Shown here: positions 9,669-34,458 of the stretch, piece after piece | Layout of the letters: each line of letters starts with the position of its first letter | How positions within the stretch are numbered: position 1 is the stretch's first letter | NCBI GenBank assembly: GCA_000442125.1 | Contig: KE546976.1 | Coordinates: 1,302,001 to 1,366,000 of the forward strand | Reading direction: 5' to 3' | Origin: Opeltia flavorubescens | Lineage: Eukaryota > Ascomycota > Lecanoromycetes > Teloschistales > Teloschistaceae | DNA length: 64,000 nucleotides | Program-made: the position numbers and the translations under genes | Notes under the pieces: model-generated | What the model was told of the DNA's origin: nothing | The model's input: the letters and a program-made list of their open reading frames with translations, nothing else | Database searches by the model: none

Positions 9669-12600
9669 ATGTCGAACGTTGGTGGAGACAAGCGGAAGCG
9701 GAACACACCCGAAGTGGAGCAGAATAAGAGATCGAGACTTGGACCGCAGGCAGTTGGACACAGATATACTGACGCTCATCATCGTCAACAGCTGAGCCAC
9801 GGTCAGTATCCGAGCGCCTGGGTTGGTCAAGGTAATGTTTCTCTTTCGTATGAAGAGGCATTTTCATTAACCTTGAGTCAAGGTGGATACTCAACTCAAA
9901 ATCCACCACCTCAAAGTCGTCAAGGGTCGGCACAGTCTCTAGACGAGCAAGAGGATCAGGAGCTGCGCGATCTTCGAGCTAGGCAGGAACGACGTCGACT
10001 GGCTCAACAGCAGGCCAATCGACCGGGGCAGCGATCTCAGGGTTCAGGGGCGACGCAACATTGTCGAGGGTATCAGCCGGCTCAGTCTCCATCTCTGGCA
10101 TACGGGTCCGGTGAACATCCGTTGGGTGGACGCGACAGTTCGAGTCCTATGCATGGCCATCTGCCTCAGCAGGCGGTACCTTCGGTCAATCTTTCGACAA
10201 AGCCAAGAGCACCAAGCTACGGCTATCCATCATTAGCATCTCAAGGCATAGCGCAACCACATCCATCGAGTCAAGCGCCTGTATCACCGTATACGACGAC
10301 CTCGGCAACGACTTTCACCTCTGAACAGCGAAGCCACAACACGCACTCGCAGGTGGGAAACCGAAACCGAATCACTCAGGCTCCTTCCAACCGAGTTTTT
10401 GGCACCAGTTACGATCGACAACCTCAGGGAGAAGAAATAGAATATGGCCTACCTGCTCCTCATTCTGGACCGTCAACGGATACCTACATTCCCTCTCATC
10501 ATTCGCCAGAGGACCAGCAACCCAGTAGTGATGGGGTAGATCTGCTTCAATATAGACCGTCACATAAAGGCTCGGGTCATTCCCGACGAGGAGGTGAGCA
10601 GCCTTTCTCCGCAATCAACGCTGACGACGACTTTTCTTTCTTGAACGATTTCAATGCTGCAGAAGGAACAGCTCGCGGTGTCGATGACATCTCAACGCCA
10701 GGTACATGGGATGCGGCTTATAATCCATACCCAAGCCAGCCCCAACAGCAGCAGCATGGCCCATTTTCAGATGCCCAAATGGCGACTTTGCTTCAGGATT
10801 ATCAACCCAATGACTGGGCTGCAGCTGGAGCGACTGCTCAACCAGTCAATCGGTATCAAACTCGGCAGTCTCATCCCACCCAGTGCTTGGGCAAACGTCC
10901 CCGGAACGATTTCGATAGCCCTGGCCTAGATGAAGAGGAGCAAGAAAATTCCGATGGAGATTCGGAGAAGCCTCAAACAAAGCGCCAGAGAAATCTTCGA
11001 CGTTTGAAAAAAGCTGGCAAGGAAATTGGAAGAGACGGCAAGCTGAAAGGCGAGGTGCATTGGGATGGGAGCAAGAATATGTACTGCTACATCAACGGCA
11101 AGGTAGAGCTGGCTGCGTATCACCACGAACGAAGGGATGTGCTTCTAGCCATTGCAGATAGGCGGGGGAGCTATAGTAAGTTAATTCGCTGACTTGAGAG
11201 AGTGATACTGACGATAGCAGGATTTCCTTCGGAACATGGCGCAGAAGACCATGATCGGATGGCCTACCATCCTGTATGTGCTCAATTCAACATGAAAGCT
11301 CGGAATGGGCGGCCAGACATATTGTATGAGGTGAGCGTTCCCCCATGGATTCGAAGCTTATTGAAAGAAAATGCTGACTGTGAGTTTGACAGTGGAATCC
11401 CCCGAATCAGAAGTCAATCGGAAAAGAACCTGGTTATATGCGTGATCCTATTGACAACAAAATTCTCTTGGATGTCGATAACCATCCAATCAAAAATTGG
11501 CCAGAACTTCCTGCGACTATCAGCGGTCAGATTGAAGGCATATGGATCGAATACTGGCACCGATTGAACCCATCAATCTCCAAGCCAGATATTGTTGCCA
11601 GGTGTCCCAAAGTTACTCAGAAACACGCGAGCGCGAAAAAGCACGAATTGACTTTAGCGGCATATGGAAACCGAGCACGTCGACATCGTGTTCTTATTGG
11701 CACTCGCGCATGGGACCCGAGGGAGGGCAGTTCGGAGATCCATGAAAAGCTCCATGGGTTGATGCCCAAACGCATCCAAGACGAAATCAAGAGCCACAAT
11801 AGCACCAAACAATGGCGCGACCTGACCAACGACGAGGTCGACATGATTCTAAGTGTCAATAAAAGCAAGGGTTCTGCGCTCAAACGGGCAGGGAATAAGA
11901 GACTCGCTGAAGATAAGAAGAAGGAGCGCGAAGATGCTCTCAGGCCTAGGACGCTGGAAGTTCAAGGAAGGATGGAGGCAGAGAAANAGCGGGAAGATGA
12001 GCAGTATGAACAACAACTGCGAGCCAAGGGAGGAGTAGATCCCAACGTTTGGCAGCCAATGTCGACCAACGGGAACCAGACTCAGGTGTCAGCTGCCAAT
12101 GCGCTTCCCAACTCTATCCATGATTCGAACGATCACCATCAGTTTGACTTTGCGGATGATTCCACGTTGATTGATCAGCCCTTTGAAGGAACAACTCTCA
12201 TCGAGGCCGAGACAATTGATCCTGCCATCACTAAAGTTTGCGCAGAGGAACTGAACAGCTCTCAAAATGGATATATGACAGCTCGTAAGTGGGCCTAGGC
12301 TATGGCCTTTGATCGCGGCGAGTTTGAAGCTGACCATGACCGACCAGCCAGCGTAGGGACTAAAGTTCCAGAGACTTCCTCAAGCGCTTCTTCGATCGAT
12401 GACCTCTTCGAAGAAGTTGACACTGGAAACAATGTCGATACAACTGCGGACGCTGACGTCAACGGAAAAGATGCCTCTCTAAATCCAAATATTACATTGA
12501 ACAAAGACGATGCCCCAGCAGATGATGAGCCTGAAGAATACTTTGCTGAAAGGCAGACGATTCTCGCGACTCAAGACCTTCCTACCATAGCGGCTAATAT

Positions 12601-13066
12601 CTCTGCGAACGAGGATCCAGCAGCTGTACCCTCATGGCCTGAAAATGACTTCGATCGTATGATTCGTGCACAAGATGAGGAACATGAGAATGGAAGACGA
12701 TGGCACCCTTTTGACTTCACCCAGTTTACCCCTGATGACGTTGGGCGACTAGAAGATACGTTGAACGATTTAGCGGAGGATTCTGGATATGTCAGTCTCT
12801 CACAGATTGAGAATAGCAGTGACGGCGACAATACTCAGGTTTTGCTATCCCAAGGGCAGGCTCCGGTGGTGCCATCCATCGCTGTGTCGACTTCTCATTC
12901 ACAGCGCCCTCCACCGGTATTACCACCAGAGATCGACGACTTTCTCTCCGCAGATGGTGACAGCCTAGGTGCCCAGTCTCGGCCGATGAATGATGGAGGA
13001 GATGAAGAGTGTAGCAAGGACATGAACGATGACGAGCTTGACGGTTTATTTAATTCTGTTGCATAG
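9669..13066 (+). CDS. Gene A: unknown family protein, 1075 aa
   Basis: Proposed exons 9669-11175, 11221-11330, 11393-12284 and 12348-13066 join in phase. The N-terminal 450 residues are Gln/Ser/Pro/His-rich and disordered-looking, with basic KRKRN and NKRSRLG near the start that could be nuclear signals. Residues about 460-505 form module 1 (GEVHWDG, YINGKVELAAYHHERRDVLL, then a Gly-x-Tyr end). Residues about 530-700 form module 2 (DILYEWNPP, NKILLDVDN, WHRLNPSIS, RAWDPREG). The C-terminal part is charged and acidic with many Asp/Glu/Ser and a likely coiled coil (KKKEREDALR). I do not recognise the family; the modules recur in genes B, C and D of this window. A single N at 11987 leaves one codon undefined. 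Phase-0 and phase-1 introns fall inside the modules. The start is the first ATG after a C/T-rich leader. Confidence 0.75.
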
Positions 13067-13888
13067 ATGGCTTTGCTTTTAAGTCGTCTCATTTTGTATG
13101 ACATCAGAAGCTGTCTTTTCCAGTATATCGGCTCCACATTAGCAAACTGAGTGCGCAGGTGAGGTGTTTTCAGAGTTGACTATTGGATCAGGTTGGGTTT
13201 CTGGATGTATCATAGATGGAGCAAGGTATTCTACGACAAACTGAATAGAGATAGATAAGGAGCAGTACGATGTTGGTCAAGACTGGTGTTGCTTGTTCCC
13301 TCAGATGTTCAGATAATGAAATCAATTAAACGTGCTAGAAGTGAAGTTGAAAGAAGCATGTTCATCACGTGATTTGATTACGTGACCAAACAAAGGAACC
13401 CCTTTTATGCAAATCACTTCATGTTCATTGTCATGATTCCTTTGTTACAGCCATGAGACTGAATTGCCTTGGTCAGTGATCTGGTCATTACTGAGACGCA
13501 CATCATGCAATGTCTATCTTTGCATCGTCTTGTTATGATTAAAAATGAAATCTGTTACTACAACGCCACCATTGTGAAAGTTTAAACTCCCATGTTCATA
13601 TTTCGGCACGTTGCTCAAGTCTATCTACTTTACCGTCATGTTGAATCCTTTTTGTTTCTCTTTGCTTGGTTTGCTTGGGAATAGCTGTTCCAGTTTTAAG
13701 CATCATTTTAGCACCTCCAATTATCATCTCCATTGTTCCTTCCCTCTACCTAAAGATTTCTCCTTTCATTACATCGCAAACATGCCGTACCCACCCACTA
13801 ATCCATATACCGCCTTCATTATCGCATATCTATCCATGCATCACTATCATACCACCAAAAAGCCAATCCGACGAAAGATCCAGCAAGG
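13067..13888. other. Intergenic with CACGTG elements
   Basis: About 0.8 kb holding the 3' flank of gene A and the upstream region of the next gene. It includes a TCACGTGA palindrome (see separate entry). A short open frame overlapping 13611-14135 lacks support. Confidence 0.4.
13365..13387. promoter_or_regulatory. Paired CACGTG-type elements
   Basis: The palindrome TCACGTGA (13365-13372) is followed six bases later by TTACGTGACC. TCACGTGA is the classical E-box bound by fungal bHLH factors of the Cbf1 type, and ACGTGAC-like sites are close variants. It lies about 500 bp upstream of the gene at 13889 and 300 bp downstream of gene A, so it could serve the former. Function is inferred only from the motif. 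Confidence 0.35.
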
Positions 13889-14569
13889 ATGGGCGAAAAC
13901 CCCAACATTATTGCGTCAAATGCAAACTCAGGGATGGTCGTCGTCGCACGTGTCACCCGGCTATATTGCCCCTTACCAATGCGGAGAAGCCCAATGGCGA
14001 CCTTCGGTGTGGGCCCTGACGAAATTGTCATCGTCCGGCGCGATTGGTTGCGTGGTGGGCGCTGGATTGACTTGGGAGACTCAGGAGAGGTTAATGGAGT
14101 GCAAGGGAATTCTGTCGCCACTCCACTCGGGATGACTCGACTGCCTTTCAGCTGGAGATATTCCTTCGATGTTGATGTATCGGATGAGGATGCGGAGATG
14201 GGGACGACTCATTCAGCTGTGCATAGGAGCAATGTGAGTGGTAGAAATCTTAATAGTCGGTTCTTTGATATAGACACGAGTGAAAGCCATTGCTAATCTT
14301 TTCTCTAGGTTGGTAGATATAGAGGGCACACCTTTCCTCCCCTGACGGAACAGGAATTCCAGGAGCTTGTTAATACCCACGATGCTTTGCATCGGTACGT
14401 ACGCGACGGCGGTACATTCGATACTCGGTACGAGAGATATGATTCCATCCACGACGATGTTGATGATGGACGCAACGCTGCAACGACCGGACCTTCGATT
14501 ACGGCAGATCCCTGGAGTTGGGTTGCTACGGTGGAAGGGGATGAAGTCGAAATTGATGTAAGGTGGTAG
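13889..14569 (+). CDS. Hypothetical protein, 201 aa
   Basis: Two exons, 13889-14233 and 14309-14569, with a textbook intron (GTGAGT donor, TGCTAAT branch-like site, TTCTCTAG acceptor) joining in phase. The product has a hydrophobic/basic start (GMVVVARVTRL), a motif VGPDEIVIVRRDWLRGGRWIDLG, and a Tyr/Arg/Asp-rich second half (GRYRGHTFPPLTEQEFQEL, FDTRYERYDSIHDDVDDG). I recognise no domain. It sits between genes A and B on the same strand but lacks their shared modules. An overlapping alternative frame from 13783 reads as MPYPPTNPY but does not join the second exon in phase, so 13889 was preferred. Confidence 0.5.
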
Positions 14570-15125
14570 TGTACGAATAGTCGATGGGTTGCTCTGAACG
14601 GATTGGGCGTAGGATTATTCTGGGTATGGCGGAATGAGACGTTGGGTAGATGTTGATGCGTACGATGAGGTGGCTGACAGTATCAACACGTTTTTTGGGG
14701 GGGTTTCCAATCTTCTGTGGAGTTTTGTGTGGAATTTAATTGATTAGTACATTCTTTTTCTCTTTTGTTCTACACTGACATCCAGATATCGTCAAATTAT
14801 CTCGTTTTCGTCGCGAGAGAATTGATTTTCGTGATGATTCAGGAATTTCCTGGATTAGCGAGGTGAGTCGCAGAGGAGAATCGGTCTTCAGTCAAAGTGT
14901 GTTGAACACCCAGGGGCATAACTCGAAACGTTTTGTGGAAAGTCTCTGTTCGACAGAATTACTGTCGTTCACGTTGTCACATTTGGAACGCCTTTGACTC
15001 CTATATATTTTCACCTTCGCCATGCTTTTGCATAATTCTCAGAAATATCTCCCAGCATCAGAGGCATATCTCATCTTGTACCTAATACCACAAAGAGACA
15101 TAAGACGATACATCGACAGTCAACA
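14570..15125. other. Intergenic, no gene seen
   Basis: About 0.55 kb between same-strand genes, with a run of G near 14696-14702. TATATATT near 15001 is a plausible TATA element for gene B, about 125 bp upstream of its ATG. Confidence 0.4.
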
Positions 15126-17411
15126 ATGGCGGATAACGATCGACCAGATCGTCAAGTGTACCGGCTACCAAGCATGGACGGCCATAGCGGACCAATTGAT
15201 ATCTCATCACAAGTTGAACCTGGAAAGGACTGGCGGCTGCTTTACGTTGAGCGCACGGGCCCTGAAGGGAAGTTTCCAGGGATTGAACATTACGAGACAC
15301 CAGAAGGGCACAAGACCATAGTCCAACCTGTTCCGTTTCCTTTGCCTAAGTTTGATGTCGGTGCCGGGCCGTTCATGGGACGCTCCGAATATGGGCGTAG
15401 CAATGAAGAACAGAAGGAAATGCGATCCTCAAAATCCGAGAAATCAGCCATGTCGGGTGTCGTGTCAACAGTATCGAGAGATGAAGAGGCTGTCTTTTCC
15501 GATGTGTATGAGTACGAGGGTTTTGATGACGTGGAATATGAGATTGATGAAGAACGCTCCACGAATCGGCCGGAATCGGGACAGGAGGTAGCTACATCTA
15601 TCGAACTCCGGCATGAGACCCCGTCCTCTTTGTCAAAGATCGAGATGAGACGTCAAGCCTACGCAGCTAAAGGCATCGAAACTGACTCATATGGAGTAAA
15701 GAAAGGCGTTGTACGTGGCAACCGGAACCTCGAGGTACTAATCAACGGCCAATGGATACCTGCGGTATATCATCACCAGATTCGGGAGAAGTTGTTGCGA
15801 ATTACAGACAAATACGGAAAATACGATGTTCCCCCTGCGCGAGGTGCTGACGAGTCTGATCGTACTGCATTTCACAAAGAGCAGAAGCACTGGAAGTTCG
15901 AAGACCGTAGCGCGAGACCTGAATTACTTTTCACCTGGGATGCTCCTAAAGATCGACTTAATGAGATCCCTGACATCTGGTATGACGGTGGTAGGATGGT
16001 GTTGTCAGTCGAAAATAGAGCGTTGAGGAAATTCAAGGACATTCCTTTGGCCCTATCAGGTAAGTACCTTTTCGAACGATGATTACTCATGGTGGACTGT
16101 CACATTGAGTTGAGACATTTACTCGTTCTTTCCGTTTCCTGCGCGAAGAAATGCTGATTCTGGAAATTGCTTAGGACAATGCGAGGGCCTCAGACTTGAG
16201 ATGATACGACGACTGAACATCAACATAAGCATCAATGGTAAGTTTTCCTTCGATTGATGACCTCCCAAAATGATCCCGCCGATGATCTCGATGTCTACCT
16301 ATTCCTTGCGTTCATTCTGTGAAGAAAAACTGACTCTACTTTCTATCTAGAATTGAAAGCGCGGATGCCACTCAAGACCACCAAACGATTAGGTCTCTCG
16401 GAAACAACCCTAGGGGCTTCCGCCATCGGCAACCGAATGTGGCGAAGCAGACTACAAACAGGCATGAAAGCATGGCATCGAGAAGGTTCCGATACTCGGA
16501 TTCATCGAATGCTGCAAATGATTCCGGAACATTTTCAGAGAGAAATCGTTCGTACGAATTCCACGCGCTGTTTCCGGGACTTCAACCAGGCGGAAATCGC
16601 CTACATCGACGAAGGGAATAAAGGCACCGAGGCATCAATGCTGAAAGCTGGCCCACGGAAGTTGCCTGAGGCTGTCCAGAAGGAACGAGAACAGCATAGA
16701 CGGTTTTTGGTTAATGGCCGGATTGGGAAAAATTTGGTGATATACCAAGTCCTTCCTGAAGCGCTTGAGCGTACGACTCCGGTGCCAAAGCTACCAAATC
16801 CACCTCCACTTGTTCTTCCAGCGAAGAACACATCCTCGATGAGTCCTCACTATCCCCGATCAAATAGCGGAAAGAGCAAGCGGTCAGCTTCTCCACTTCC
16901 AGAGACGACGCCTTCGAAGCGACCCAGAGTTCCTCAAGCCGAGCAATTTAAACAACCAGCGAGAACGGGAGGACGTAGCAACGACAATCCATATGTCGGC
17001 AATACTCCAAGCACCCAACCAATCCCAATCAATCCACATCTCAGACCTGCTCCTCGATACACGACACCACTCCCCACCAACCCCCTTATCACCAACCCTC
17101 CAAATAACCAACCACCAATCCCAGCCAACCCCCCCATCACCGGCCCCGATGTCCGCTACAAAAAACCCTCCACCATCCACGAGATGACCCTCATCCAAGT
17201 AGCCCTCAGCATGACAAAAGCAGACTTTATCCAAAGAACAATGCAACTCCCACCCGCGACTGATCGCAATGAGTGCTACGCTTATCAGGTTTCTGAGCTG
17301 CAGTCTGCGCTTGAAGAGCTGCTTGGGAGGCAAACGGTGGGGATAAAGCAGTTTGGGAGGTGGAGTTCTATGGAGAGTTGGAGGGGGGAGATTGGGCAAG
17401 GTGAAGGGTGA
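15126..17411 (+). CDS. Gene B: unknown family protein, 685 aa
   Basis: Exons 15126-16059, 16175-16237 and 16351-17411 join in phase (two phase-1 introns with GTAAGT donors). The N-terminus is acidic. Module 1 is at about residues 180-240 (LEVLINGQWIPAVYHHQIRE, KLLRITDKYGKYDVP). Module 2 is at about 255-430 (ELLFTWDAP, GRMVLSVENRALRKFKDIPLALS, IRRLNINISINELKARM, GNRMWRSRLQTGMKAW). The tail is Pro/Asn/Ser-rich with a basic KRPR patch, suggesting a nuclear, partly disordered protein. The modules match gene A (YHHERRDVLL; RLNPSIS), gene C and gene D. No enzyme motif is evident and the family is unknown to me. The second intron falls inside the ISIN-E-LKARM motif, within one or two residues of an intron in gene D. 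This supports common descent. Confidence 0.75.
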
Positions 17412-17973
17412 GGGAGGAGTGATAAGACGGTGTGGGGTATTGAATGCGTCTCTCATGTCGATGAGTATTGAAGACGTCGTGCGTGAGTGGAGTACTTGCT
17501 GCTCGGTGTATTTCTTTTTGGGGGTTTTGTGTCATGATTTGGATGGGAATGATGATTTGGGTAGTGCAACTTCGGACTTGACAGTAGTATGAAGGGCTGT
17601 CGAAGTATCGGTGTCATGGGTTTGAAGGCTTGGGCTATTGTCGTTAGATCTTGTAGGTAGAGGAGTCAACTTCTGAACCAGGGGTCATTCAATTCATTTG
17701 TGTTTTACTCTCCAAGCCTTTGTTCCTGGCCATAGATCAACAACGACAGATGTCATCGTATCGATTTCAATGGCTATCGTAAATGACGTGCATTGATATT
17801 CCACTTGGCATGGCTTGAATGATTAATTGAAATATAGTTATTACTTAGGAAGATTATTCAACATAATCGTTCCCGAGGAGGGCCCCTCAGGGGATAAAAA
17901 TAGAGTAGTCTCGTATGGCTCGTGCTGTTGTGACGGCCCGTGGAAGGGGGAAAGCTCTGAGTGGTATGAATTC

Positions 17974-18213
17974 CAATGACCGAGTTGTGAGCGGTACAGA
18001 TTACTCAACCATAATGCAGGAGCTACAAGACTTTCGTCTGACTCATGCTCTGGTGTTGCCCCGTTGGAACAAAGTAGATACAATGGTACGTATATCAATG
18101 ACCGAATTGTGAGCGATACAGCTCACTCGATCACAGTGCGGGAGTCAAAAGAACCTCGATTACAATACCAGAGCCAAAAGAACCTCATCTGACTCGTATG
18201 TGCTGATGTGGCC
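17974..18213 (+). repeat. Diverged tandem duplication, period about 122 bp
   Basis: Unit 1 begins at 17974 and unit 2 at 18096. Both start with CAATGACCGA.TTGTGAGCG.TACAG, continue with ...CTCA..CATAATGC.GGAG-like sequence, and end with CTGACTC.T...CTG.TGTTGCC or its variant. An extra internal AGAACCTC repeat occurs in unit 2. No coding frame is shared. It is probably a decayed local duplication. Confidence 0.5.
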
Positions 18214-18967
18214 TGTTGCAGGAAGGGAGCTGCAAATGACACGATACTCCATGAAAAAGTTTGAGCAACGCAGCTGATTATATCATCCAACAGGAGAAAT
18301 TGTTTCGTCCGGATTGTGTGTTATGCGATGGCGGCCGATCTAAATACCCGCTTGACAAAGATCTACTTTCAAAGACCCGGTGAAGCGATACCACCCATAG
18401 AAACCACCTTCTGGGTGAAAAACTATCAGTACTCAAAACCACCGAACGACACCAAATGACTAGAGGGAGCGAGACAGAGAGTATGGAAGTATTCGGTGGA
18501 CGAACGAGGTAAAGTGGCAAGGGATCGGCACAAGCATTGCACATGAATCGGGGGTTCGGCGGACAGGAAGAAAATAGAGAGGCAGCGTCGCCACCGAAGA
18601 TGTAAAGCTCTGCCAAATGGTACGATGTTTGCATGGAACGAAAGAGTGGAAATGGTCGAGGTGGTATTGTCGCGGTGTTCTCACTGTGAATGTATGAGAT
18701 CCTCCTCTGACGTTATGCAGAACCCCTAGGCTACACATCCAACGTTTCCCCTCCCGTGTGATCGTTGTCCTAAAGCAAGCAGCAAGGATACGAGGAACTC
18801 GGTACCACGATCCAGGATGCGCGAACCAGATGAAACAGAGAAGAGACTAAAGTAGGACCTGCTTGCTAAAATTCCCCTAAAATCCTTGCAAGTGTGGAAA
18901 TCTTGCTCAATCACCCCTCACCCCCGACTGCGCTGTTTAATATTCTTCTGTGTGCCATACCAAGTAG

Positions 18968-18977
18968 TATATAAATA
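18968..18977 (+). promoter_or_regulatory. TATA element of mini-gene cassette 1
   Basis: TATATAAATA lies 96 bp before the ATG at 19064, with a C/T-rich stretch (CCTTCCCTTCATTCTG) just downstream, a normal fungal core-promoter layout. The inverted copy of the cassette has its own TATATA at 21028-21033, 170 bp before its start. Confidence 0.45.
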
Positions 18978-19063
18978 CCTTCCCTTCATTCTGCAGACTT
19001 CTGAGATTCGTCTTTCTCAATGTTAGCAATCACACAGGCACTGAACAGCGACCGTTGTCTTCC

Positions 19064-19249
19064 ATGCTTAACGCTCTGTTAAACCGATTACGGACAGCGT
19101 GGCGTCAGCTTCCACCGGAGTACCAAAAGGGAATACGTCGAAGGGTTTTCCCATATTGTGCATCAGCGATAATTGTGCACGACTTACGGAATCCGCCGCG
19201 GCCTTCTGAAGCGACCGAGGAGTCAGTTACTGATCGACAAGAAAAGTGA
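19064..19249 (+). CDS. Mini-gene P1, cassette copy 1 (61 aa)
   Basis: Short ORF of 61 aa starting MLNALLNRLRTAWRQLPPEY. It is basic and amphipathic at the N-terminus, like a mitochondrial presequence (inference). Its reality rests on conservation: the minus-strand ORF 20670-20858 encodes MLEATLRRLRTAWRQIPLKT, sharing the start Met, the LRTAWRQ core and KGI/QGI downstream. The stop TGA is followed by 33 nt and then, in the same frame, by ORF P2. No in-phase intron that would join the two ORFs in both copies was found. The family is unknown. Confidence 0.55.
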   Translation: MLNALLNRLRTAWRQLPPEYQKGIRRRVFPYCASAIIVHDLRNPPRPSEATEESVTDRQEK

Positions 19250-19282
19250 TTCAGGAAACTGTAAACGCCGACGAAGAGCAAA

Positions 19283-19495
19283 ATGCGCCGTTCTATATTT
19301 GATCGACTGTCCGGCATGTTACGAGGTCTTCGCTGGGAGAAGGGGGACCTGACGACACCGGAGTCAATAATATTCGTCTCGCTTATAGGCATGCAAACTT
19401 TCAATGCGATTCAACGGCATTTGCCAAAAGGATGGCCGGCTGGTACGAGTAAGGAAGCAGCCACGAATGGGCAGGCAACAGCAACCGATAAATGA
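19283..19495 (+). CDS. Mini-gene P2, cassette copy 1 (70 aa)
   Basis: ORF of 70 aa lying 33 nt after the P1 stop and in the same frame; a second in-frame stop (TAA) lies in the spacer. The sequence contains GDLTTPESIIFVSLIGM, a short hydrophobic stretch, then FNAIQRHLPKGW and a polar tail ending GQATATDK. It matches the minus-strand ORF 20421-20636 (GNLTKPERGAVFAVIGLMV, tail GQAKPSDT). It could be a small membrane-associated protein. If P1 and P2 share one transcript, P2 would need reinitiation or an unrecognised mechanism; separate transcripts are also possible. Confidence 0.55.
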   Translation: MRRSIFDRLSGMLRGLRWEKGDLTTPESIIFVSLIGMQTFNAIQRHLPKGWPAGTSKEAATNGQATATDK

Positions 19496-20420
19496 TAACA
19501 TGGCCGCACGATGCACTAATCAAATATCATCCCTTTCTGAGCTCCATCATTAACGACGTCTACTATTGATGCACGCACGGCACCATCATCGCATTACAGC
19601 TGCTTTGCCTAGTCCGTAGATCATATATCGTGGTACCGAGCTCCTCGTATCCTTACTTCTTGACGATACGAGGTAGCATAAAACCTCGGTTATGGAGCCA
19701 GCAGCTATGACACAACATGGCCAGTGCGAGGATCAGTTCCCGTAGAATGGCGACTCTGGGAGTACCTCGACCATTTCGGAGATCTGTCAATACCATACCA
19801 CGCATAATAATCCTCGTCTGAATGACAGTCTCCGAGCATTCGAAGGACTGAAAGAGAAGAAATGTATACAGTGGCCGAAAAAGGAGGAGAAGCACCAGAG
19901 AAGCACCGGCATAATGGGTGATGAAGGAGCGGAACGGATATTGAACGCAATCGAAGAGAAGCTCCAAAGCAAAGAGTGACGGAGAAGCTGCATGGCATCG
20001 TAAACATATCGAGGTCTCGGTGAATGGGACTCGTACAAATATAAGGCAGTACGATTGACAAGCGATGGTTGTTGGGCAAGTTGATGATGGGATGTCTCTT
20101 AAGAAGAGTCAAGTGTAATACAGAAGAGGGAAGTGATATGGACGGCATGGATCTTGTATTCCAGTAGTGATAGAGTAGCCTTCCATACCCAACAACATGT
20201 GTATCCCCCATTATAAACGCCATCACAAAGCGAGACTAAGAATGAGAGGGGTGCAGCACCGAAACATGATGCGTGATTCCATTCGGTCAGAAGACGGTCA
20301 GAGGGGAGAGAATCTTTCCTGGTCCTAGAGGCGAAGAATCGGTAAAGCGATGGTAGATGATTGATGATAACGTTGAGAGGGGAGTGGTGAAGTCTTCTAG
20401 CTTTCGTATGATTACATATG
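19496..20420. other. Spacer between inverted cassette copies
   Basis: About 0.9 kb around the centre of the inverted duplication. A minus-strand frame at 19705-20226 is open but Ser/Leu/His-rich and without recognisable motifs; I do not call it a gene. Confidence 0.4.
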
Positions 20421-20636: not shown

Positions 20637-20669
20637 GGAGACTGCTGTGTTCGCAGCTCTAATTTCGAC

Positions 20670-23296: not shown

Positions 23297-25452
23297 ATGT
23301 CAGAAGTTCCTGATCACTGTGGTATGTCATGAGTTCATCTTGTTGAGAGGAGAAATCATTGCTCATCACATATATGCAGCATTCCTCAAAGAGATGAGGA
23401 AGAAACGTGCAGCGAAGACGCGAGCAACAGCCCGCAAACGAGCTCGGTCCGCAAAATTTGACCGCAATTGCCATCTCTCCGACGGTAAATTTTAGCAGCA
23501 GTGAGATCCAGAGTGAGAGCTGACATTGAATAGATGATACACTAAGCCCTGAGCCGAGTGAGATAGACGTTGGTAAATATGAAAACCAACCCAACTTGTC
23601 CAAAGCCGAGCCCGTCCCATCCGATGAGGTCAACCTTACAGACATCGACGACCAAGAAATCTTTGGGTATGACTTCATCCCGTTGAACGAATCTGATTCA
23701 GACTCCTATCCCGAAGCCTGCCACCGAAATGGTATATTGCCGGAATCTTCCACCATAGACGAGGATGATGCGGATTTGCCCAGTGGTGAGGAAGATGCTT
23801 CCGAATCAGACTCCTCCTACTATGATGAGGAGAATACTGGCATTGGACAATATGAAGTCCAGGACAATACTACTGTCAATGGCACTGAAAATCATACCAA
23901 GAGAAAGCCTTGCGTTAAAGCCATGGGAGAAGTACGTCTTGACGAGGATGGAAAGCTGGAGTGGCAGGATCCTGTATCTCAACAATGGTGTAAGTCTTGC
24001 TGTATCCTATAATTTGCACTACTCTGACCATTGGCTTAGATCCTGCGGTCCGTCACACTGACATCCGTGAATGGCTGATCGCCGAAGCGGCGAAATTGGG
24101 CAAATACAGTGAGCCATCACCGAGTCGATGCTTGTAAGGCACCTGGCTGAATGCTTGTAGGATACCCCATGGCCCGCGGTAAACATCCACTTGATGTTGT
24201 GAGTCTCGACCCTCCTTGCATGATAGTGTTAAAACGCCCTGACTCCAGCCAGACCGCCTTCCACCCAGCCTTCAAAGACTACAGCGACAAACGTGAGAAC
24301 TGGCCCAAAATCCTATTCCAATACCTACCCCGTCAATCCGATCTATCGCACGTCAAGCCCGACTACTGGCAACTCCACGACGGACGCTACGTCATCGACC
24401 TCAACAACCAAGCCATGTACGACTACCCACACATGCCCGTCACCCTAGCCAAACACGCAGATACCTGGCTCCTCCTCACTCTCATGCGCATGAACACCAC
24501 CATCTCCATCCAAGATCTCCGCGGCCGTATGATCGGAGGCATGGACCGCTCTCGTTCCGATCCAATGGGTAGAAATCGAATCAGCATGAATATGCAACGG
24601 TTCCGCAAATTCGCATGCTGTTTGACGTGGACTTCGATTCAGGCGAATAATGTTCAGCGCGATTATTTGGATAAGAAGTTGCCGAGGCGGTGCTTGAGGG
24701 AAAATTCTACGGAGAGCTTTCGTATGCTTTATGCGCATGAGGCTGCGGAGTTGGATCTTGTGGATGCGGGGAAGTTTCTGCATNGGACGAGGGCGAAGGT
24801 TAGGGATCTTTCGGAGGGGAAGTCAAAGGCGGTTTATAAGAGGAAGTTGAGGGAGTATGAGGTTCAGAGGGAGAGGTTTGAGAGGAAGTTTCCGGATGGG
24901 GGGCCGGGGTTTTATGATACGGAGGATGAGGAGTTTCAGGCGAAGCGCGAGGAGGAGGGTGATGGAGTGTTTAAGCCTGATAGGAAGAGTGAGAAGGTGA
25001 ACGTTCTTCCTGATTTATCTGGTACGTCCTCAGGGATTGCAACCAAGGATTCAAAGGAAGAAAAACTCTGCCCCCGCGGCCACCGCAACTACGCCGGCTT
25101 CCTCACCACCGCACCCAACACAGTCCAACAAGCACAACTCCTCTACGACCTTCTACGCCCTACGCGCGAGCACTTCAAATCCGTCATCGGCACCTATCCT
25201 CCCAAGACCGCCGGGGATGAATGCTATTATTGTCAGCATCGCGATCTGCAGGATGAAATTTTGGCGTTGCAGGGAAATGCGCAGTTGAGGGGTGTGACTA
25301 AGTTGATGGGGGTGATGTATGTGGATGATAAGATGGCTTATTGGAATGGGAGGTGGGATGTGGGCTTGATGGGGGGGAGGGTTAGGTTTTTGAGGGGGGA
25401 GGGGGGGTTGGGGGGGAGGAAGCAGTGGGATGGGGGGAGGGGGTGGTACTGA
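23297..25452 (+). CDS. Gene C: unknown family protein, 648 aa
   Basis: Five proposed exons (23297-23321, 23380-23484, 23534-23989, 24040-24108, 24161-25452) join in phase. The short N-terminus has a basic stretch (KKRAAKTRATARKRARSAK) that could be a nuclear signal, then a long acidic Asp/Glu/Ser region. Module 1 (GEVRLDEDGKLEWQD, QQWYPAVRHTDIREWLI, KLGKY) is followed by module 2 (KILFQYLPR, DGRYVIDLNNQ, LMRMNTTISIQDLRGRM, ISMNMQRFRKFACCLTW). Both correspond to genes A and B, and the KY|R phase-1 intron matches the SY|R intron of gene A. The C-terminal third is charged, probably coiled coil, with a Cys/His-containing patch (KLCPRGHRNY, CYYCQH) that may bind metal. N at 24784 obscures one codon. 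The last 30 codons are Gly-rich. Confidence 0.72.
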
Positions 25453-26906
25453 TGTTTTGTAAGATCTTTGTGAGGATGGTGTCAAGATACTGAAAAAAAG
25501 TGGTGGAGAAGTTTGAGGGTACTACTGCGACAGCTAGGATATGTACGTTGCTGCGGAAGATGGATGTATGTCTGTCTGTCGGTTTGTTCGATACGGAGGA
25601 GAAGTCCGCTGTCTGTATGACATCTGTGGAGGCTTTCTAAATGTATGAAGCGGAGGATACAAGTCGGCTTGTGCGATATCGAGGAGGAAAGGTCGGGTTC
25701 CGGTTTCAAAGCTTGTATGATGCGGAGGAGGAGGCAATTGTACTCCTAACTACATACGCTCCTTTTTAGTATCTGCAGAGGGTTATCTTCCTGCAAAGAG
25801 GGAAATGTAGGTTAGAGACATTCAAAGATTGTGATAGATTTGATAATGCTGCCACCGTATTTCTGCTATGGGATGTTATGGGGTTCTGTCCTGGCCCACG
25901 AATGCGTCCTTCCTCTTCTCTCTCCATGTCACGCCTTCGATGGTTTATAGTTGTACTTTGATTAAGTCATGTTCATCTTTAGGCGCTGAACACTTTAAAT
26001 CTCTCCGGCGCTGTAAGCTCGTCGTCATTTCTTCCCCATAAGTGGACCAGTAGATCTTGTCATTACTCCTATCGCTTACCCATTGGTAGCTCTGATATCT
26101 CATCTTTACCTGATAAAGAACTTCGAACATCTCTAGCGCTGTGATTGAGTCTTAGTATCTCCCATGTCTGACCATAAGAACCCTGTCGCTCTCAATTATC
26201 CAACTGACAAGCTGAGTTTGCCTACTCTATTACCGCTTATAATCACCCACCGGTACCTTCTCCCAGATTCATATTATCGTAATCCTCGTTTGCGTCATCC
26301 CTTCTCCCGGCGTGTATATCGTTCCCTTTGCTCATCGTGGGTGATGAACTGCCATGGTAAGGACCCAGCTGCTTGCTTACTCCTTGTGAGATAAATGCTG
26401 TTGACTACTAACTGTTGCTCGGCTTCTCCTTCTCGCCGGCGCCCGAGTTCGATGTCGGCGGGATTGCGAGTTTAGTGACCCATTGGCGATGTTTCGGCCG
26501 CTGCCTGGAGGTGGTTTTGGAGGATGAGAAGTTTGCGGGTGAGGGGAGAGATAGGAAAGGATGGAGATTTGGTGGAGTATGTGGTGGGAGGATAGTGGGC
26601 GTTGTCGTAGGAGAAGGTTGAGTTTAGGTGCTGGACGCAAAGGTTGATAGCGAGGAGATGCATGAAAAATTATTGGATTCAGCGTTGGTGGTGATGCTGG
26701 AGGCGTGTAGAGAATGCGTGGAGGTCCCATGTCTAATATCTTTGAAAATAACGTCGAGAGTAGGCTCCTATATCTGCGGTCTGCTATGAAAAATCCGATA
26801 TCTGGACCCGTGTGAAAGGTAATGAAAGACTGTTGGTAGGCGTCATTCAATGCATGTCGCCGTTCTTACGCTTTGAGCCAACAGCTTCAACTAGATAGCT
26901 TCTATT
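25453..26906. other. Intergenic, no supported gene
   Basis: About 1.45 kb between the convergent gene C and NLR gene. Two weakly similar stretches (about 25985-26030 and 26112-26150, sharing TCTCT..GCGCTGT) may be an old local duplication. ORFs at 26377-26850 on the minus strand are Pro/Ser-rich and unsupported. Confidence 0.4.
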
Positions 26907-29900
26907 CTATTGTAGCGCTCGGAGATGGTGTTCTATGACTAAATTTGTGTACCCATTGTACCAATCGCCATCGGATCTTTCTTGACGATTGAGCCACTGC
27001 TGGTCATTTATGCAGTAGTCTTTGCTATGCGATGGGTAATCGAAGTGACCATGATGACCCCATGTGTTGCGCAAACATTGCTGGTTGATTAAGATTGCTT
27101 CATCGAGTAGGATTTGATCATCTACATCAGAGATATCCAGTACTGAAACGCCTTTAGAACGTAGCGAAATGAGCGCAGCGACAGCCCAGCGTCGACCTGC
27201 AGTCGCGATGAATAGCGGACTGTAGCCTCTATTATCAGCTGCGAAGACGTCAATATTCTCCACCGTAAGAAGCCTCTTCGTCAAGCTTATCTCGTCTTTT
27301 GTGTCGGACATGGTTGTCCACGCTGCGCGCCACAACGGACTTTCACCAAGGTCATCCTTGCTGTTCACGTCGACGTCAGGTCTGGCGAGTAATGCATCCA
27401 CGACTGCTAGGTTGCCCCTGCCTACCGCTATAGATAAAGGAGTTTGGCCTTTTTTCGATTTATGATTAGCGGCATTCGTTTTCATCAGTATTGAAGAGAC
27501 CACATCCGCGGAGCCATTTTGCACTGCGTAGCATAAAGGCGTTAAACCCTCGTGATCTTGGGCATCAGGATCAGTGACCTTCGATAATAACGCATTGACG
27601 ACAGATTTACGTCCAAACTTTGCCGCGTATAACAATGGACTTCGACCGAGTACATCTCTTGCGTCAGGATCCGCGTCCTCAGATAACAGGATCTGGACTA
27701 CTGCCTCGTGCCCATTTTCGGCCGCATAGGATAATGGAGTCTGACCATGCGGGCCTTCAACGTCTACGGTGACGTCTAGCTTCGATACAAGTAGCTTGAC
27801 TACAGTTTGAAACCCGCGCCGTGCGACAGAACATAGCAGTGGTCGGGAATAGTCTTCCACACAAGTGGGACTGATATCGCCATTTGCAAGTAAACAGTAT
27901 AGAACTGCGTCTGGTCCATACGAAACTACCCAAGCAAGGAAGTCCTGGCCCTTGCGGAGATGAATCGGTCGTATTTTAATCATTGCTTCAATGGCAACTT
28001 GCTGATAATCCTCTCTGTCCTTCTGCTGAATGTCCAATGCTCCATTCCCATTGCTTCTTTTGAATATCGGGCTTAGAAATTCTCTAAGCGTGTCATCGCT
28101 GATTTTGGTATCCGTCAAGGCGACATGCAAGGGAATAGACCAGCGTCCAAATTTAAGAGACTCTGCTAAAGTGTACTGCGGTGATTGCCACATAAAAAGC
28201 AATTCTCGCTCCAATTCGATGTGCACGAGATGACTGTGATTTTTCTTAGTCAGTATGAGGAGTAAAGTTGTCTTATCATCAAAGCGCCGAACTTGAAATT
28301 TTTCGAAAAGGTTGTGAAGTTTGATCCAGTCAAGGACTTCGAAATTATTCCAAGCAACCTGCTGGGAAACACCATCCTGCTCAGCTCTCTCTGCATGAGA
28401 TAGCACATATTGAGTCGCATACTGTAGGAAAGGAAATCGTTCCGAGACTTGTGCACGGAGTTCTTTCGCATCTTCAGATGACCACACTGGCAAATCCGTT
28501 ACAGCAGGTAAGTACTTCCAGGTATCGATGCTAATATGTTCAAGACAGCACCGCTTCAGTCGTTCGTGGCTTCGACCAGTTTCAAGCTCAGACTTCAACT
28601 TGTTGAAACCATTCTTGCCAACAAGGAAATCACGCACGGACTCATGAATGAACTGGACGTTCTGCGCTTTCGCTTTTGTCGTCTCTGCTAGACCTTTCGA
28701 GCAGCTCAAGATGAATCTTTCCATGTCCTCAACGCTGACTGTATCGGGACTGGCCCAGTCTAATTCATCAGCATCGGTCCCTGATAGGATACCATAATAG
28801 AGTTCTTCCCGCTTCAGTGGGCGCATCGCGTAGAGGATCCATTGAAGGCATAAAATCAATTGGTCGACACGCTCCTGATCTCTTGTGAGGATGTCCTCAA
28901 ATAATTTGTCCAGTCCATCGGGTATTTCTTTCAGCCGCCGCCGAAGCGTATGTACGCGACCATGGTCATATTCCTTATTCAGAATCTGTACGACGAGAGC
29001 CACCCATAGGAATACACCAGAAGCGCGGTTCCGTATCTCCTCTTTGATAACCTCACATTGCTTTCCCTTCCCAGCTCTGAGCTCACCATCCAAGTATCTT
29101 GCAATATCTTGATCGTGACCTTCTTGCCCTTCCAAAGTCAGCTCAATTCCATTTTGGATTGATATGTATGGATAATGGCGACTGGAAAGACAGGCGCGGA
29201 AGTTTATCTGGGACGATATAACAATCTCTCCGAGTTCTTCGAGGAATCTTATCAAGTCTCGTATTTGGCTTTCTTCGCATTCGTCCAATGCATCGATGAA
29301 GCAGATCAATTGGCGTTGACCTAGCTTCCGGAATGCATCAACGAAGAGTGTTTGGAGCTCGACAATATCCCAAGCATACGACTCTCCGTCATGAAGATCT
29401 GTGGATCTAGGCCAAGAGATGTGCGTCTGGAGATCTGGATATGCTCCAATTAATTGAAATAGTAGAGATCGGTACATGCCTACTGTAGATCTTTCCAACT
29501 CTTCGCCTCTTGCGTTGAAGAAGAATGATATGACTTTAGCCTCCTTTATTCTCCTCGCGTTTTGCACGGCGAATTTTAGAATCGTCGACTTGCCGCACCC
29601 AGGCTTACCCTTGATCCAGAAGATGCCATGATGAATCATAGTTTTCCTGATATCGGACCAGTCTTGATATTCCTCCCGGTGAAGCAACCATTTACATGTT
29701 TTGGAATGTGCCGATCTGATAGTAGAGTACCGCGCGTTGAGTGCAGGGAACGATAGAGCGTCCAGAAGCGCTTTTCGTTCTGTGTCGCTCGCTGGAATTC
29801 TCTCATCTATAGCAAATCAGTGTACAGGTCTAAAAAACACTCGAGAGCGACAGACCTTGCTGCCTCGTTTGATCTTGACACGCTTGGGCGATCTGTGATT

Positions 29901-30962
29901 TAATACGGTCGAAAGCAGCAATGACCTTGCAGTATTCTTGATCGTCCAGTCCACTGAACCGACAAATTTCCATATGGTTCCTTGCGATGTGTTGAGTTGT
30001 TTCAAGACTGAGATCGCCAAGGCATGAAGAGACGTCTTCTACGACCTGGACAGCGGTGAATCCTGGTATTCGTCGCATCAAATCCTAGTGAATTCATCTC
30101 ACCTTCTTGCCACCCAAGGCTTGAACCCCATATTGTTCTTGGAAGGAGTGTATAAGCCAGCCCTCACGCCGGGCCATCGGTCCGAACTCGTCACGTAATT
30201 CCCTCAACCGCTCAGAGCTCGGCAGTAGCGTGCTGATGACCTGCTCGTTGACCCTAAGACCACAAGCTCTAGCAACCTGTTCTGCAAAATGCTGGAGAAA
30301 GCCGCGAGGGTCCGCTCCTCCGTGTGGTGTTCCAAAGAAAATGATCGCGGACGTCGATTTGTAAATCTGATGCAAATGGATTTGGTGGTCCTGGAAGCTG
30401 GCTGACCGTCGGAGCATTTCTTTCACTACAATACCGCCTAGGCTATGAGCAACGAAAATGATTGGCTTTGAAGACTGTGAATGACGTGCAGCATCCAGGC
30501 TGACAAGGAAATCCCATGCGATATCATACACGGTATTCTTGCTGACCGGAGCCCCGAAGGCATGACGCAGATTCGTATCATAGCCGTAAGTAAAGATACG
30601 AGCGGAAGGTAGGAGCTCAGGAAGGAGATGCTTAGGCCAATACACATGTTCGCGATCCCAATCATTCACCTGCGTAGGTCGAGATATGGCAGACATGAGA
30701 CGCGGCATCTTTGCCGGGCGATGGTAAGCATCGACAGATTCATTATTCCTGTCGCTGCCAACGGTTACGGATTTGTGACTCCAGGTACGTACAGGATGGC
30801 CCGTGAATCCATGTACGAAAACAACGCTTCACTGCATTAGTCCCAATAAAGTGGAATCGATACATGGAATTACTCGATATCTGGTTCACTTGGATCCACC
30901 AGTACTGACAACCCAGTTGTGCTAGGCTCAAGGCATGCTGTTGCGGCTCTTGAGTTTTCCAT
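26907..30962 (-). CDS. NLR-type protein: SesB-like lipase - NACHT - ankyrin repeats
   Basis: Exons 30874-30962, 30103-30826, 29856-30045 and 26907-29806 join in phase to 1300 aa. The N-terminal alpha/beta-hydrolase domain has VVFVHGFTGHP near residue 31 and the nucleophile elbow AHSLGG (Ser about 158), then FFGTPHGG, as in fungal SesB-like effector domains. A linker (VVEDVSSCLGDLS, QHIARNH) leads to a NACHT NTPase with Walker A GKPGCGKST (about 401-409) and Walker B CFIDALDEC (about 503-511). The C-terminus has at least five ankyrin-like repeats (about 1025-1230; GQTPLSYAAENGHEAVVQIL, GRSPLLYAAKFGRKSVV, GLTPLCYAVQNGSADVV, GQTPLSIAVGRGNLAVV). Fungal NLRs act in non-self recognition and regulated cell death. 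Binding through the repeats would oligomerise NACHT and activate the lipase-like domain (family knowledge). The gene appears intact. Its ligand is unknown. Confidence 0.92.
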
Positions 30963-31915
30963 GGTGTTTTAGGACTGCCATCAAAACTCAATGAGCAATT
31001 ATTGTTCCCTCGTAAATCCCGGTGTTCTAATACGAAAGAGATGTGTGCAAGATAGAGAGACAACCAAGATAAAAGCTGAAGAAATTATACGATTGGAGCC
31101 TGGGACGGAAGTAGTTTAGCCTTGCGATTGAAAAGAATAAGTAAAGACTGTGGCGTCATGCATATTGAAACCAATCATATACATTGACCCGAAAATCAGA
31201 TAAGAACTCATAAACCTCATAAATCATCGTGGATTGAGAAGCTGCTGCCAATGTGAGACCATATGCTTTCTGGTCTTGAGGCTGTGTTATCGAGGTTGGG
31301 CGCTTACGCAGCCTTGTCAGGCAGATCGATGAACGCCAAGCCAAACCCTGGCCGTGACCCAAGCCCTAAACCTAATACGCATGAACACTGCAGTGCATGA
31401 GGCACAAAACGCAAAGCATTTGGTGAGCAAAGACAGCTTGTAGAAAGAATATGAACATTGTTGAATGAATGTATGTGCATGAAATGAATTAATTCGTAGA
31501 AGAGATCTATGGAGAATGAAGAGATCGCCCAGGGCTTGTGGCGTTAGTACAAAATTAGGCATAGTGCGATTGAGAAGCCGTTGCTTGGCGCAATGCGCAC
31601 CTGTGATTCGCCCAAATAACGAGAAATAAGTTATTGACAAATGCATGAGATTGACAAACATTTCAAAAGACACGTGAGAGAAAGAAATATCGCCAGATGC
31701 GCTAGCTGGACGCTCCCCTTTAGAACTTACTCCTTCGAAGCTCACGCCCATTAACATCTAACTATCCTGGCTGATCTTCCTGACTATCTCCTGATACAAG
31801 ATCGTCCATCCACAGATTCCATCGATTCCCTTGATTCTATCTCTCCTCGACATTCGCGGAGCACGTAGAACTGTAATAAAATTATCTTTCGGTGGTATCT
31901 CGATGTTGAAGATCA
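30963..31915. other. Intergenic, 3' flank of gene D and NLR promoter
   Basis: About 0.95 kb. A minus-strand frame at 31317-31757 is open but shows no motif and lies directly downstream of gene D, so it is most likely 3' flank. Nothing else is supported. Confidence 0.4.
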
Positions 31916-34458
31916 TCAACGTTCGTAGCGAGGATCATATTGATCATTTCGCTGTATGGTGCGTGCCCGCTCTTCTTCGTAAAGTTGTTGAAGTCGCTGT
32001 TGTTGATGGGGACTGGTTGCGTGTTGCGCTGGTGGGTGATAAGTTGGTGGCTGATGCGCAGTGAGAATGGGCTGAATGTTTGGCTGCAGAGCCTGCTCGG
32101 GGATTCGAGACTGTTGGGAATGCTGATGTTGCTGGGGGTACCCAGGCTGCAGGGGTTGGTGATGCTGTTGAGGGTGTCGATGGCCTTGATGATATTGATG
32201 ATGCTGATGCTGCTGCTGATTGTGATGCTGAGGGAGATGAGGCTGCCGGAACTGCTGAGGAGCTTGAGTTGGCTGGACATGTTGAGCTTGCTGAGTTTGC
32301 TGAAAACGTTGAGCTGACTGGCCTTGTTGACCATACGGAGGCTCTTGACCATGATGTGGGTAGTGTTGCTGTTGGTACAGATTATCCTGTCGCGTCCCAG
32401 CCCAGTAGAAGGGAGGAACCTGTCCCATGTTCGCGACAGGTGCAGAGCCTGGTGCTCGTGGTTGGCCTGTAGCAGTCTGAGTTTGTTGGGTGTATTGCAT
32501 TTGAGGACCAGTGGCGTATGTTGGGGGTGATGAACCAGTAGGGAATTGATGTTGACCGGGATGCTGAACACCATGTGCAGGGATTTGGTCGCCAGTCGGT
32601 ACGTGCGAAGGCTGTCTTTGATTGAGAGGTATTGGATGCCGTGCACGATTGGGGGCGTGGATTGTTCCTCCCCGAAGTGCATCTGCATACGTTCGTTGCT
32701 GTGATGGAACCGGTGGAGGTTGACCTCGACTGGTGTCCTGAGCGCTGTGACTATAGTTATGAGGGCCAATTGGGACATTGCCCTGCTGTGCCTGCGCAGA
32801 AAGATTTGACTGCGGTGAAATTTGGGTTTGCTGCGCGCCCGCATTAGGGCCATTATCGAACGACGCCGCATGTTCTAGGTATTTTGGAGGCAGATCGTCA
32901 GCATACGTACGCTGCGTTCCTCCATTTCGAGTTCCGCAGATTATTACCGACCGTGACTGAGATTGAGGCCGGAGAGGTGGCCGCATCGAATTTTCACTCG
33001 TGCCAGCGACAGCGTCGGGCTGATTAGCCTCGGTGAAGGTATTGGCATCGAGTATGTCGGAAGCCTCTTGAATGAAATTTCGGTAAGGATCGACAGGTGC
33101 CTCGCCGATGGACTGAGAAGTACCCGGAAGATGACCAAGATTCAAAGGACCTGCAAGACGTTGAGTTCTCCGGGCGGAATTGCGAGCTTGTCTTTCGCGA
33201 GCACGTCTTTCCCGAGTCCGTCGTTCGTATGCTGCGAGGACAAGATCCGTAGCCGTCGGATCAGTATACACTGAAACTGGTTGCCCTCCTTCTGTAGTCA
33301 GAGTATGTGGGTTGGATGGATCGGAGGAGACGGTATATTGCCCTTGTGTAGGAGTGTCATTCGGGCCGGGTGCGGTCTTCTGTCTCTCGCGCTCAGATGG
33401 AGATAGCACAGCTTCAGAGGGAGGTCTTGTAGACTCTTCATCTGTAGAATCTTCCTCCAGAGAATTCCTGCCCGATTGAGCGATAGTTCGATCTTTTTCG
33501 ACACCCCATAACATCCGGCGATCCGGCATTGGTTTTTGCATACCAGCGCCCTCGATGGTTATGGGTATCGGAACCCGGTTTCCAGCAACTTCACCAAGAG
33601 TAGGATCGGTCAGACCAGGAGTGAGTCCTCTTGTGGTATTTTCACGTATTTGCTGGTCTGTCATCTTGTTCACCCAATCGACAGGCTTTCTACGCCTAGA
33701 TTCCGTGTCCCAGGTGAGTATGTGGTATCTTTTCCGACCTCTACCAGTCATCATGTTAATGTTGTTACCTTCAGAGTTCTGACTCCGCTCCCCCTTTTTG
33801 GTCAGCATCTGTCGCATTAGTATATCTTTCCAACTATAAGCCGTCAGCTCTCTCATAGATGTGGGCAATGCATCAAGGATTGACAAACCGGATACGTGGG
33901 TCATAGCGACGCCACGCTTCATAAACCCAGAAATACTCCTGGCTACCAATTTGATCTGGTAGGTGCTTGAAATCCAGGAGCATCTTCGGGTTGGTTGGAT
34001 CATCCGGCCATTGCTCGTACATGATATTGCCATTGGCATCCCTCTTAGCAGGGGGAAGTTTCTTGCCCTTAGCCTGGGTGGTCTTAAAATCGATCCAATT
34101 TTGAGGCGGCTTGAACAGGTAGAGAATCTACAATCATGTTTAGCTTACTTGAAAGGGAGATTGGTAAGATGGACTGACATCTGGCATATTCTCTTCACTC
34201 CAGTTTGCTTGGCTTCGCAAATGTCAGCTTTATGCCGTGAGTCCGGTGACGTTTAGACCTACCCAGGATGAAACGAGGTCACATCCTGTGGACCACCAAA
34301 GCCTGTACGACGAGGAGGGTCTACAGCGAAACAATCAGTGCTAACACAACCATGAGATCTTTTGAGGACTTGCCGTATTGTGTAGGACCGCCTGGCACAA
34401 TGGTCCAGTCACTCGTCGCGAGGAACTCGGGCGTTTCATTCCACGGCACTAACGCCAT
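31916..34458 (-). CDS. Gene D: unknown family protein with Q/H-rich tail, 777 aa
   Basis: Five exons (34374-34458, 34263-34320, 34179-34212, 33889-34127, 31916-33833) join in phase; the first intron has a GC donor (G|GCAAGT). Residues about 60-230 correspond to module 2 of genes A-C: DILYLFKPP (gene A DILYEWNPP), PKMLLDFKHLP, YEAWRRYDPRIRWKDILMRQM, GRGRKRYHILTWD. Module 1 is not seen. A Ser/Pro-rich middle follows, with ERRTRERRARERQARNSARR as a basic nuclear-type patch. The last 300 residues are Gln/His/Pro-rich (runs of QQ, HQQQQHQHHQYHQGHRHPQQ), a prion-like or scaffold composition. The fourth intron coincides, within one or two residues, with an intron of gene B. Function is unknown; a nuclear, phase-separating or transcription-related protein is a guess from composition. 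Confidence 0.72.

What the first reader, a model, noticed from the sequence alone, without database searches (positions are those of the whole stretch)
9669..34458. Local expansion of an undescribed two-module gene family (genes A, B, C, D)
Four genes within 25 kb share module 2: a strand motif [DEK]-[IL]-L-[FY]-x-[WFY]-x-P (A DILYEWNPP, B ELLFTWDAP, C KILFQYLPR, D DILYLFKPP), then a [KR]-[MYI]-[LV]-[IL] strand, then R-x-[ND]-x-x-I-S/R-x-x-[DE]-[IL]-x-x-R-M/C, then an Arg-rich helix ending in a W. A, B and C also share module 1 (W-x-P-A-V-Y-H-H...R-E-x-L-L...G-x-Y). The flanks are rapidly diverging low-complexity, acidic or Q/H-rich regions with basic patches. I know no named family with this layout. 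Dispersed copies on both strands, mixed with an NLR and an inverted mini-gene cassette, suggest a fast-evolving accessory locus.
Basis: partly seen in the sequence, partly recalled or inferred. Interest (0 to 1): 0.85.

Follow-up and report, generated by a model that had tools for sequence, protein, structure and literature searches.

The report
Locally clustered unnamed fungal gene family
Four related genes in this stretch of a fungal chromosome belong to a larger, so far unplaced family that was found almost only in one 200-kilobase neighbourhood and whose proteins may bind DNA or RNA in the nucleus; their role is unknown.

Summary
After splicing, A, B, C and D are homologous: 5 of their 6 pairs reach E <= 1e-3 by BLASTP, and B/D is 0.045. 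In the 264 kb examined around the window there are nine genes with the core domain (A-I), plus a tenth, J, with only a third, C-terminal module. Leave-one-out profiles recover 9 of 9 cores. A, C, D, E and G share a phase-1 intron. Whole-genome searches with five of the nine cores hit only contig 12 (about 196 kb), plus a decayed copy of F on contig 10.

No significant Pfam, NCBIfam, PDB-sequence or Foldseek match was found. Both AlphaFold models were poor, pLDDT about 50. The Arg-rich helical part carries net positive charge in 9 of 9 members. Tentative best reading: nuclear nucleic-acid-binding regulators. A Myb-like relation was tested and not supported. Recent expansion is not supported: listed pairs are 22-37% identical and no DNA-level duplication touches the genes. 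Spread across other fungi could not be tested.

The parts
9669..13066 (+). Gene A: exons 9669-11175, 11221-11330, 11393-12284 and 12348-13066 (last intron inferred). Q-rich N-terminus, core domain, acidic tail. No C-terminal module was detected in it.
   Evidence: Splice sites and open frame, 1075 aa plus stop; homology to the other eight.
11223..11893 (+). Gene A: core domain from the end of module 1 through module 2 (introns 11331-11392)
   Evidence: Fragment coordinates; leave-one-out E 2e-54.
15126..17411 (+). Gene B: exons 15126-16059, 16175-16237, 16351-17411
   Evidence: Open spliced frame of 685 aa, GT-AG junctions.
15741..16652 (+). Gene B: modules 1 and 2 (core)
   Evidence: Fragment coordinates; leave-one-out E 7.6e-61.
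17154..17387 (+). Gene B: C-terminal helical module
   Evidence: Profile match to residues 278-355 of the exon-3 frame, coordinates converted; leave-one-out E 1.8e-10.
23394..25452 (+). Gene C: exons 23394-23484, 23534-23989, 24040-24108, 24161-25452 (start codon uncertain; one ambiguous base at 24784)
   Evidence: Open spliced frame, GT-AG junctions.
24163..24783 (+). Gene C: module 2 in one exon; used as the query of the first structure prediction from 24223
   Evidence: best leave-one-out domain E 5e-37.
25108..25446 (+). Gene C: C-terminal helical module followed by a Gly-rich end
   Evidence: Profile match to residues 320-432 of the exon-4 frame, converted; leave-one-out E 4.8e-7, the weakest of the six.
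31916..34458 (-). Gene D: exons 34458-34374, 34320-34263, 34212-34179, 34127-33889, 33833-31916; end of module 1, module 2, then a long Q/H-rich tail
   Evidence: Open spliced frame of 777 aa; junctions, one of them GC-AG; leave-one-out E 2.4e-18, the weakest core.
26910..29816 (-). Neighbour, not a family member: NLR-type frame with NPHP3_N/NACHT and ankyrin repeats
   Evidence: Pfam NPHP3_N 2e-33, Ank_2 3.7e-35.
30097..30828 (-). Neighbour: alpha/beta-hydrolase-like frame upstream of the NLR frame; whether it is the NLR's N-terminal part was not settled
   Evidence: DUF676 E 0.0015 and PGAP1 E 0.0023, both below Pfam's cut-off.

Best explanation
A paralogous family of nuclear nucleic-acid-binding (most likely DNA-binding) regulatory proteins of a type with no name in the libraries searched. 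The core begins with module 1 (WxPAVYHH..IR..L), continues with short strands ([DEK][IL]L[FY]), and ends in an Arg-rich helical part whose conserved R and W would contact nucleic acid. The C-terminal helical module would bind a partner or dimerise, and the acidic or Q/H-rich disordered flanks would recruit other factors. Shown: common descent, module layout, positive charge of the helical part, clustering on one contig. Inferred: nuclear location, nucleic-acid binding, and all functions of the flanks and of the C-terminal module.
For: Common descent: and shared intron positions. Net charge of the Arg-rich helical part (69-75 aa) is +4 to +8 in 9 of 9 members. The sum, +58, was reached by 0 of 2000 random sets of 72-residue windows from the same proteins (mean -0.5, maximum 46). 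R and W columns are invariant across the nine (R131, R144, R176, W184 of the first row). At least one NLS-like basic patch occurs in 8 of 9 models by a loose pattern without a control. No hydrophobic 19-mer reaches 1.6 (highest 1.24, in F). Both low-confidence models are mostly helical in this part.
Against: No known nucleic-acid-binding domain matches: Pfam finds only HLH at E 0.049 in 1 of 9 cores. The Myb-like idea scored no better than column-shuffled controls (54 of 100 at or above). Models are poor (pLDDT 50.2 and 50.4, pTM 0.33 and 0.27) and Foldseek gives nothing at E <= 0.001. H has no NLS-like patch in its partial model. Basic charge also fits RNA, chromatin or other acidic partners.
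Confidence: 0.35

Rival explanations
1. An ordinary, old, uncharacterised ascomycete family without special local meaning: ancient tandem duplicates kept near each other by low rearrangement, with common orthologues in other fungi that nobody has named.
For: Listed pairs are 22-37% identical and no DNA-level duplication touches the genes, so the duplications are old. Sequence between the genes includes ordinary genes such as an RPE65-like protein, a glycosyltransferase and an ABC transporter. I recall, without any test here, similar NTTRGLTPGL-like stretches in unannotated ascomycete proteins.
Against: Five whole-genome searches found one relic outside the interval, which is tight for old duplicates. 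Fungal proteomes could not be searched.
Confidence: 0.3
2. A component of an accessory or self/non-self recognition neighbourhood: the proteins vary between strains and act with the nearby NLR and HET-domain genes.
For: Within the 196 kb lie two NLR genes (near 1285 and 1331 kb) and two HET-domain genes (1225764, 1272044). A rough Poisson estimate gives 0.7 expected, P about 0.006.
Against: The estimate is post hoc, uses row merges made by eye (42 NLR, 85 HET) and ignores that such genes cluster. The genome holds 47 NPHP3_N and 87 HET matches, nearly all without family members nearby. MAT lies on contig 10, not here. No strain variation could be examined.
Confidence: 0.12
3. Domesticated remnants of a mobile element, the core being a former DNA-binding or structural part of it.
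For: A decayed copy of F sits on another contig with a short G-like piece 1.2 kb further on. RIP-like stretches lie in the interval.
Against: No transposase or other mobile-element domain matched in the frames scanned (a selection of the frames, not all of them). No shared flanking repeats at DNA level. Introns are conserved across five members.
Confidence: 0.1

Closest known systems
Myb/SANT-type helix-turn-helix domains
   Same: By eye, helix - short helix ending in RMP - loop - Arg-rich helix ending in W recalls Myb repeats (recalled comparison).
   Different: hhalign against five recalled Myb/TRF sequences aligns one column, probability 0.13; 54 of 100 column shuffles score as well.
Pfam HLH (PF00010)
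   Same: The best Pfam hint on a core: E 0.049 in 1 of 9 cores; 0.49 for whole B.
   Different: Below the curated cut-off (10.7 against 20.7 bits); 8 of 9 cores show nothing at E <= 5.
Locally clustered lineage-specific paralogue families of fungi, as a kind of arrangement (from general knowledge)
   Same: Many diverged paralogues in one chromosome neighbourhood, with NLR and HET-domain genes among them.
   Different: No recent duplicates, and taxonomic spread is unknown.

Membership tests
The family described here (core domain) | Each member is recovered by a profile built from the others | tested here: met
   9 of 9 cores in leave-one-out, E 3e-65 to 2.4e-18 for a one-sequence search.
The family described here (core domain) | Shared intron position | tested here: met
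   Column-58 phase-1 intron in A, C, D, E, G, 5 of 9 (E's phase after moving the junction by one base to GT-AG). B and I have introns elsewhere; F and H have none in the core.
Myb/SANT domain | Profile-level similarity over the three helices | tested here: not met
   hhalign probability 0.13, one aligned column, no better than shuffles. The Myb sequences were recalled, not fetched.
Pfam HLH and other named Pfam domains | Score above Pfam's gathering cut-off | tested here: not met
   No family above cut-off in cores or in the fuller sequences scanned. D's Q/H-rich tail and A's acidic tail were not scanned.
DNA-binding proteins in general | Fold or binding assay | tested here: inconclusive
   Models poor, no Foldseek match at E <= 0.001; binding not testable here.
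NLR / HET allorecognition genes | NACHT/NB-ARC or HET domain in the protein itself | tested here: not met
   No such domain in the members scanned; only neighbours have it.

The most novel reading that the evidence does not exclude
A new nucleic-acid-binding domain family, unrelated to any solved fold, that has been held for a long time in one chromosome neighbourhood together with NLR and HET genes and acts there as a diversified recognition or regulatory system.
Probability: 0.1. Interest if true: 0.75.

Novelty: new variant of a known kind. Interest (0 to 1): 0.42.

Why it matters
If the core is a new nucleic-acid-binding domain, it adds an unlisted type of fungal regulator. A family almost wholly confined to 200 kb despite deep divergence is a testable case of why some families stay put. 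If the family proves common and merely unannotated, it still deserves a Pfam-type entry; the nine sequences and intron map give a seed for that.

Tried and rejected
Myb/SANT relation: tested with hhalign and rejected. HLH: one weak hit in 9 cores, not accepted. PDB sequence hits YopM (E 0.014, no stretch passing on its own) and MMP-14 (1.8) for B and RelE (1.6) for the profile were taken as chance. KANSL3 (0.057, F) and GYF (0.1, A N-terminus) were also taken as chance. Close relatives in viral contigs (D query) and prokaryote genomes (F query): none. Mating-type linkage: the alpha box is on contig 10. Literature: seven full-text searches showed no paper recognisably about this family in the listings; only listings and abstract starts were seen, no paper was opened, and without a species or family name such searches are weak. 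First gene models with wrong frames were corrected.

Limits: genome searches score only the best candidates, so copy number is a lower bound. Five of nine cores (B, C, D, F, I) and one C-terminal module (G) were used as whole-genome queries; A, E, G and H cores were not. The sensitive profile was run only on 334 kb of contig 12 and 30 kb of contig 10. The C-terminal query missed known copies in B, C, E and J, so C-terminal modules elsewhere may have been missed. Start codons of C, F, G and H and the joint of H's two frames are unsettled.

Full report
What was checked. The window lies in an unnamed fungal genome of 34.4 Mb in 23 contigs, at contig 12 (1,598,914 bp), positions 1302001-1366000. 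I built spliced models for A, B, C and D by hand from splice sites and open frames. They give open proteins of 1075 aa (A, with an inferred last intron), 685 aa (B), 635 aa (C) and 777 aa (D). In the models of A, B, C, D, E, G and I, 20 of 21 introns are GT-AG and one, in D, is GC-AG. No transcript data were available.

The homology is real. Among A-D, 5 of 6 pairs have BLASTP E <= 1e-3, the best A/B at 4e-44; B/D is 0.045.

The family is larger. A profile of the four cores run over the six-frame ORFs of 264 kb (contig 12, 1122001-1386000, window included) finds five more genes: E, F, G, H and I. With nine members, 32 of 36 pairs are listed at E <= 0.01, at 22-37% identity; the four missing pairs (B/D, D/E, D/H, D/I) all involve D. 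Leave-one-out profiles recover 9 of 9 cores. Extending the scan to 334 kb added no further core at E < 0.8. Eight of the nine are on the + strand. Contig positions of gene starts or first modelled exons: E 1140620, F 1143356, G 1150133, H 1154889, I 1275521, A 1311669, B 1317126, C 1325394, D 1336458 (-).

A third module. B, C, E, F, G and H share a C-terminal helical stretch (PTIEHY...P...Y..Q...L..W.GGI..W). Leave-one-out recovers 6 of 6, the weakest being C at 4.8e-7. The profile also finds a tenth gene, J (1146783-1147586, -), at E 4.8e-12, which has a basic N-terminus and no detected core.

Intron evidence. A phase-1 intron at alignment column 58 (K/S-Y|R) is shared by A, C, D, E and G; one at column 34 by C and E; a phase-0 intron at column 113 (PD|IL) by D and G. 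For E, one search printed phase 0 because my junctions were one base off GT-AG; the corrected junctions give phase 1. B and I have introns elsewhere, and F and H have none in the core. This supports common descent, and D's membership in particular.

Genome-wide distribution. Whole-genome searches with the cores of B, C, D, F and I returned 12, 9, 6, 11 and 12 matches. All are on contig 12 between 1141032 and 1336416, except two from F on contig 10 (1452309-1452679; 66 and 74% identity, with stops). These searches score only the best candidates, and four cores were not used, so the count is a lower bound. The contig-10 copy is a broken relic of F in three pieces (77-81% at DNA level, 3.4 kb between the first two), with a 61-bp piece 90% like G. 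Over these four pieces, C>T plus G>A changes number 59, the reverse 26 and transversions 44, which fits RIP-like decay or mutation bias.

No recent expansion. Within 334 kb, no self-match longer than 100 bp at E <= 1e-10 touches a family gene. The tree of the nine cores has modest support (62-83) and long branches.

What it might be. The nine cores give no Pfam family above cut-off; the best hint is HLH at 0.049 in one of nine. Fuller sequences gave only weak chance-level hits. NCBIfam, a prokaryote library, gave none, and PDB sequences none below 0.01. The fold is therefore unknown, not shown to be new.

Why I favour nucleic-acid binding. The Arg-rich helical part has net charge +4 to +8 in 9 of 9 members, and 0 of 2000 random window sets from the same proteins reach the observed sum. 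R and W columns are invariant. Basic patches occur in 8 of 9 models by a loose pattern, and there is no membrane-like segment. The flanks are acidic or Q/H-rich, as in many regulators (general knowledge). Against this: the Myb-like resemblance that I first suspected failed its test, and no known domain matches. Confidence is therefore 0.35.

Neighbourhood. The 196 kb also holds two NLR genes and two HET-domain genes among 47 and 87 matches genome-wide. A rough, post hoc Poisson estimate gives P about 0.006, from row merges made by eye; I give it little weight. Conserved genes also lie nearby (Rix1-like and MBOAT-like to the left; alpha-actinin-like and TPR-rich genes to the right), so this is not shown to be an accessory chromosome region.

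Verdict. A real, locally clustered, three-module paralogue family that no library searched here names; function and taxonomic spread are open.

Noticed in passing
contig 12:1146783-1147586 (-), gene J (L003): A basic protein that carries only the C-terminal module of the family, between F and G.
   Followed up: partly
contig 10:1452309-1457952 (L022, L023): Broken relic of gene F in three pieces with a short G-like piece; excess of C>T and G>A changes.
   Followed up: partly
window 18776-18838 and 19600-19662: Inverted-repeat pair, 63 nt, 76% complementary, 761 nt apart; no other copy in the 334 kb of contig 12 or the 30 kb of contig 10.
   Followed up: partly
contig 12:1202000-1217000 and 1287000-1292000: Low-GC blocks (0.42-0.45) with raised TpA/ApT (0.84-1.10), as in RIP-mutated repeats.
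   Followed up: no
contig 12:1282045-1286535 (L017), -: Second NLR-type gene (NPHP3_N, many ankyrin repeats), about 5 kb from gene I.
   Followed up: no
window 11987, 24784, 45557, 54315: Single ambiguous bases N in the assembly, two of them inside genes A and C.
   Followed up: no
window 6636-7973 and contig 12:1266686-1267702: Two frames with weak DUF7730/2EXR similarity, both below Pfam's cut-off.
   Followed up: no
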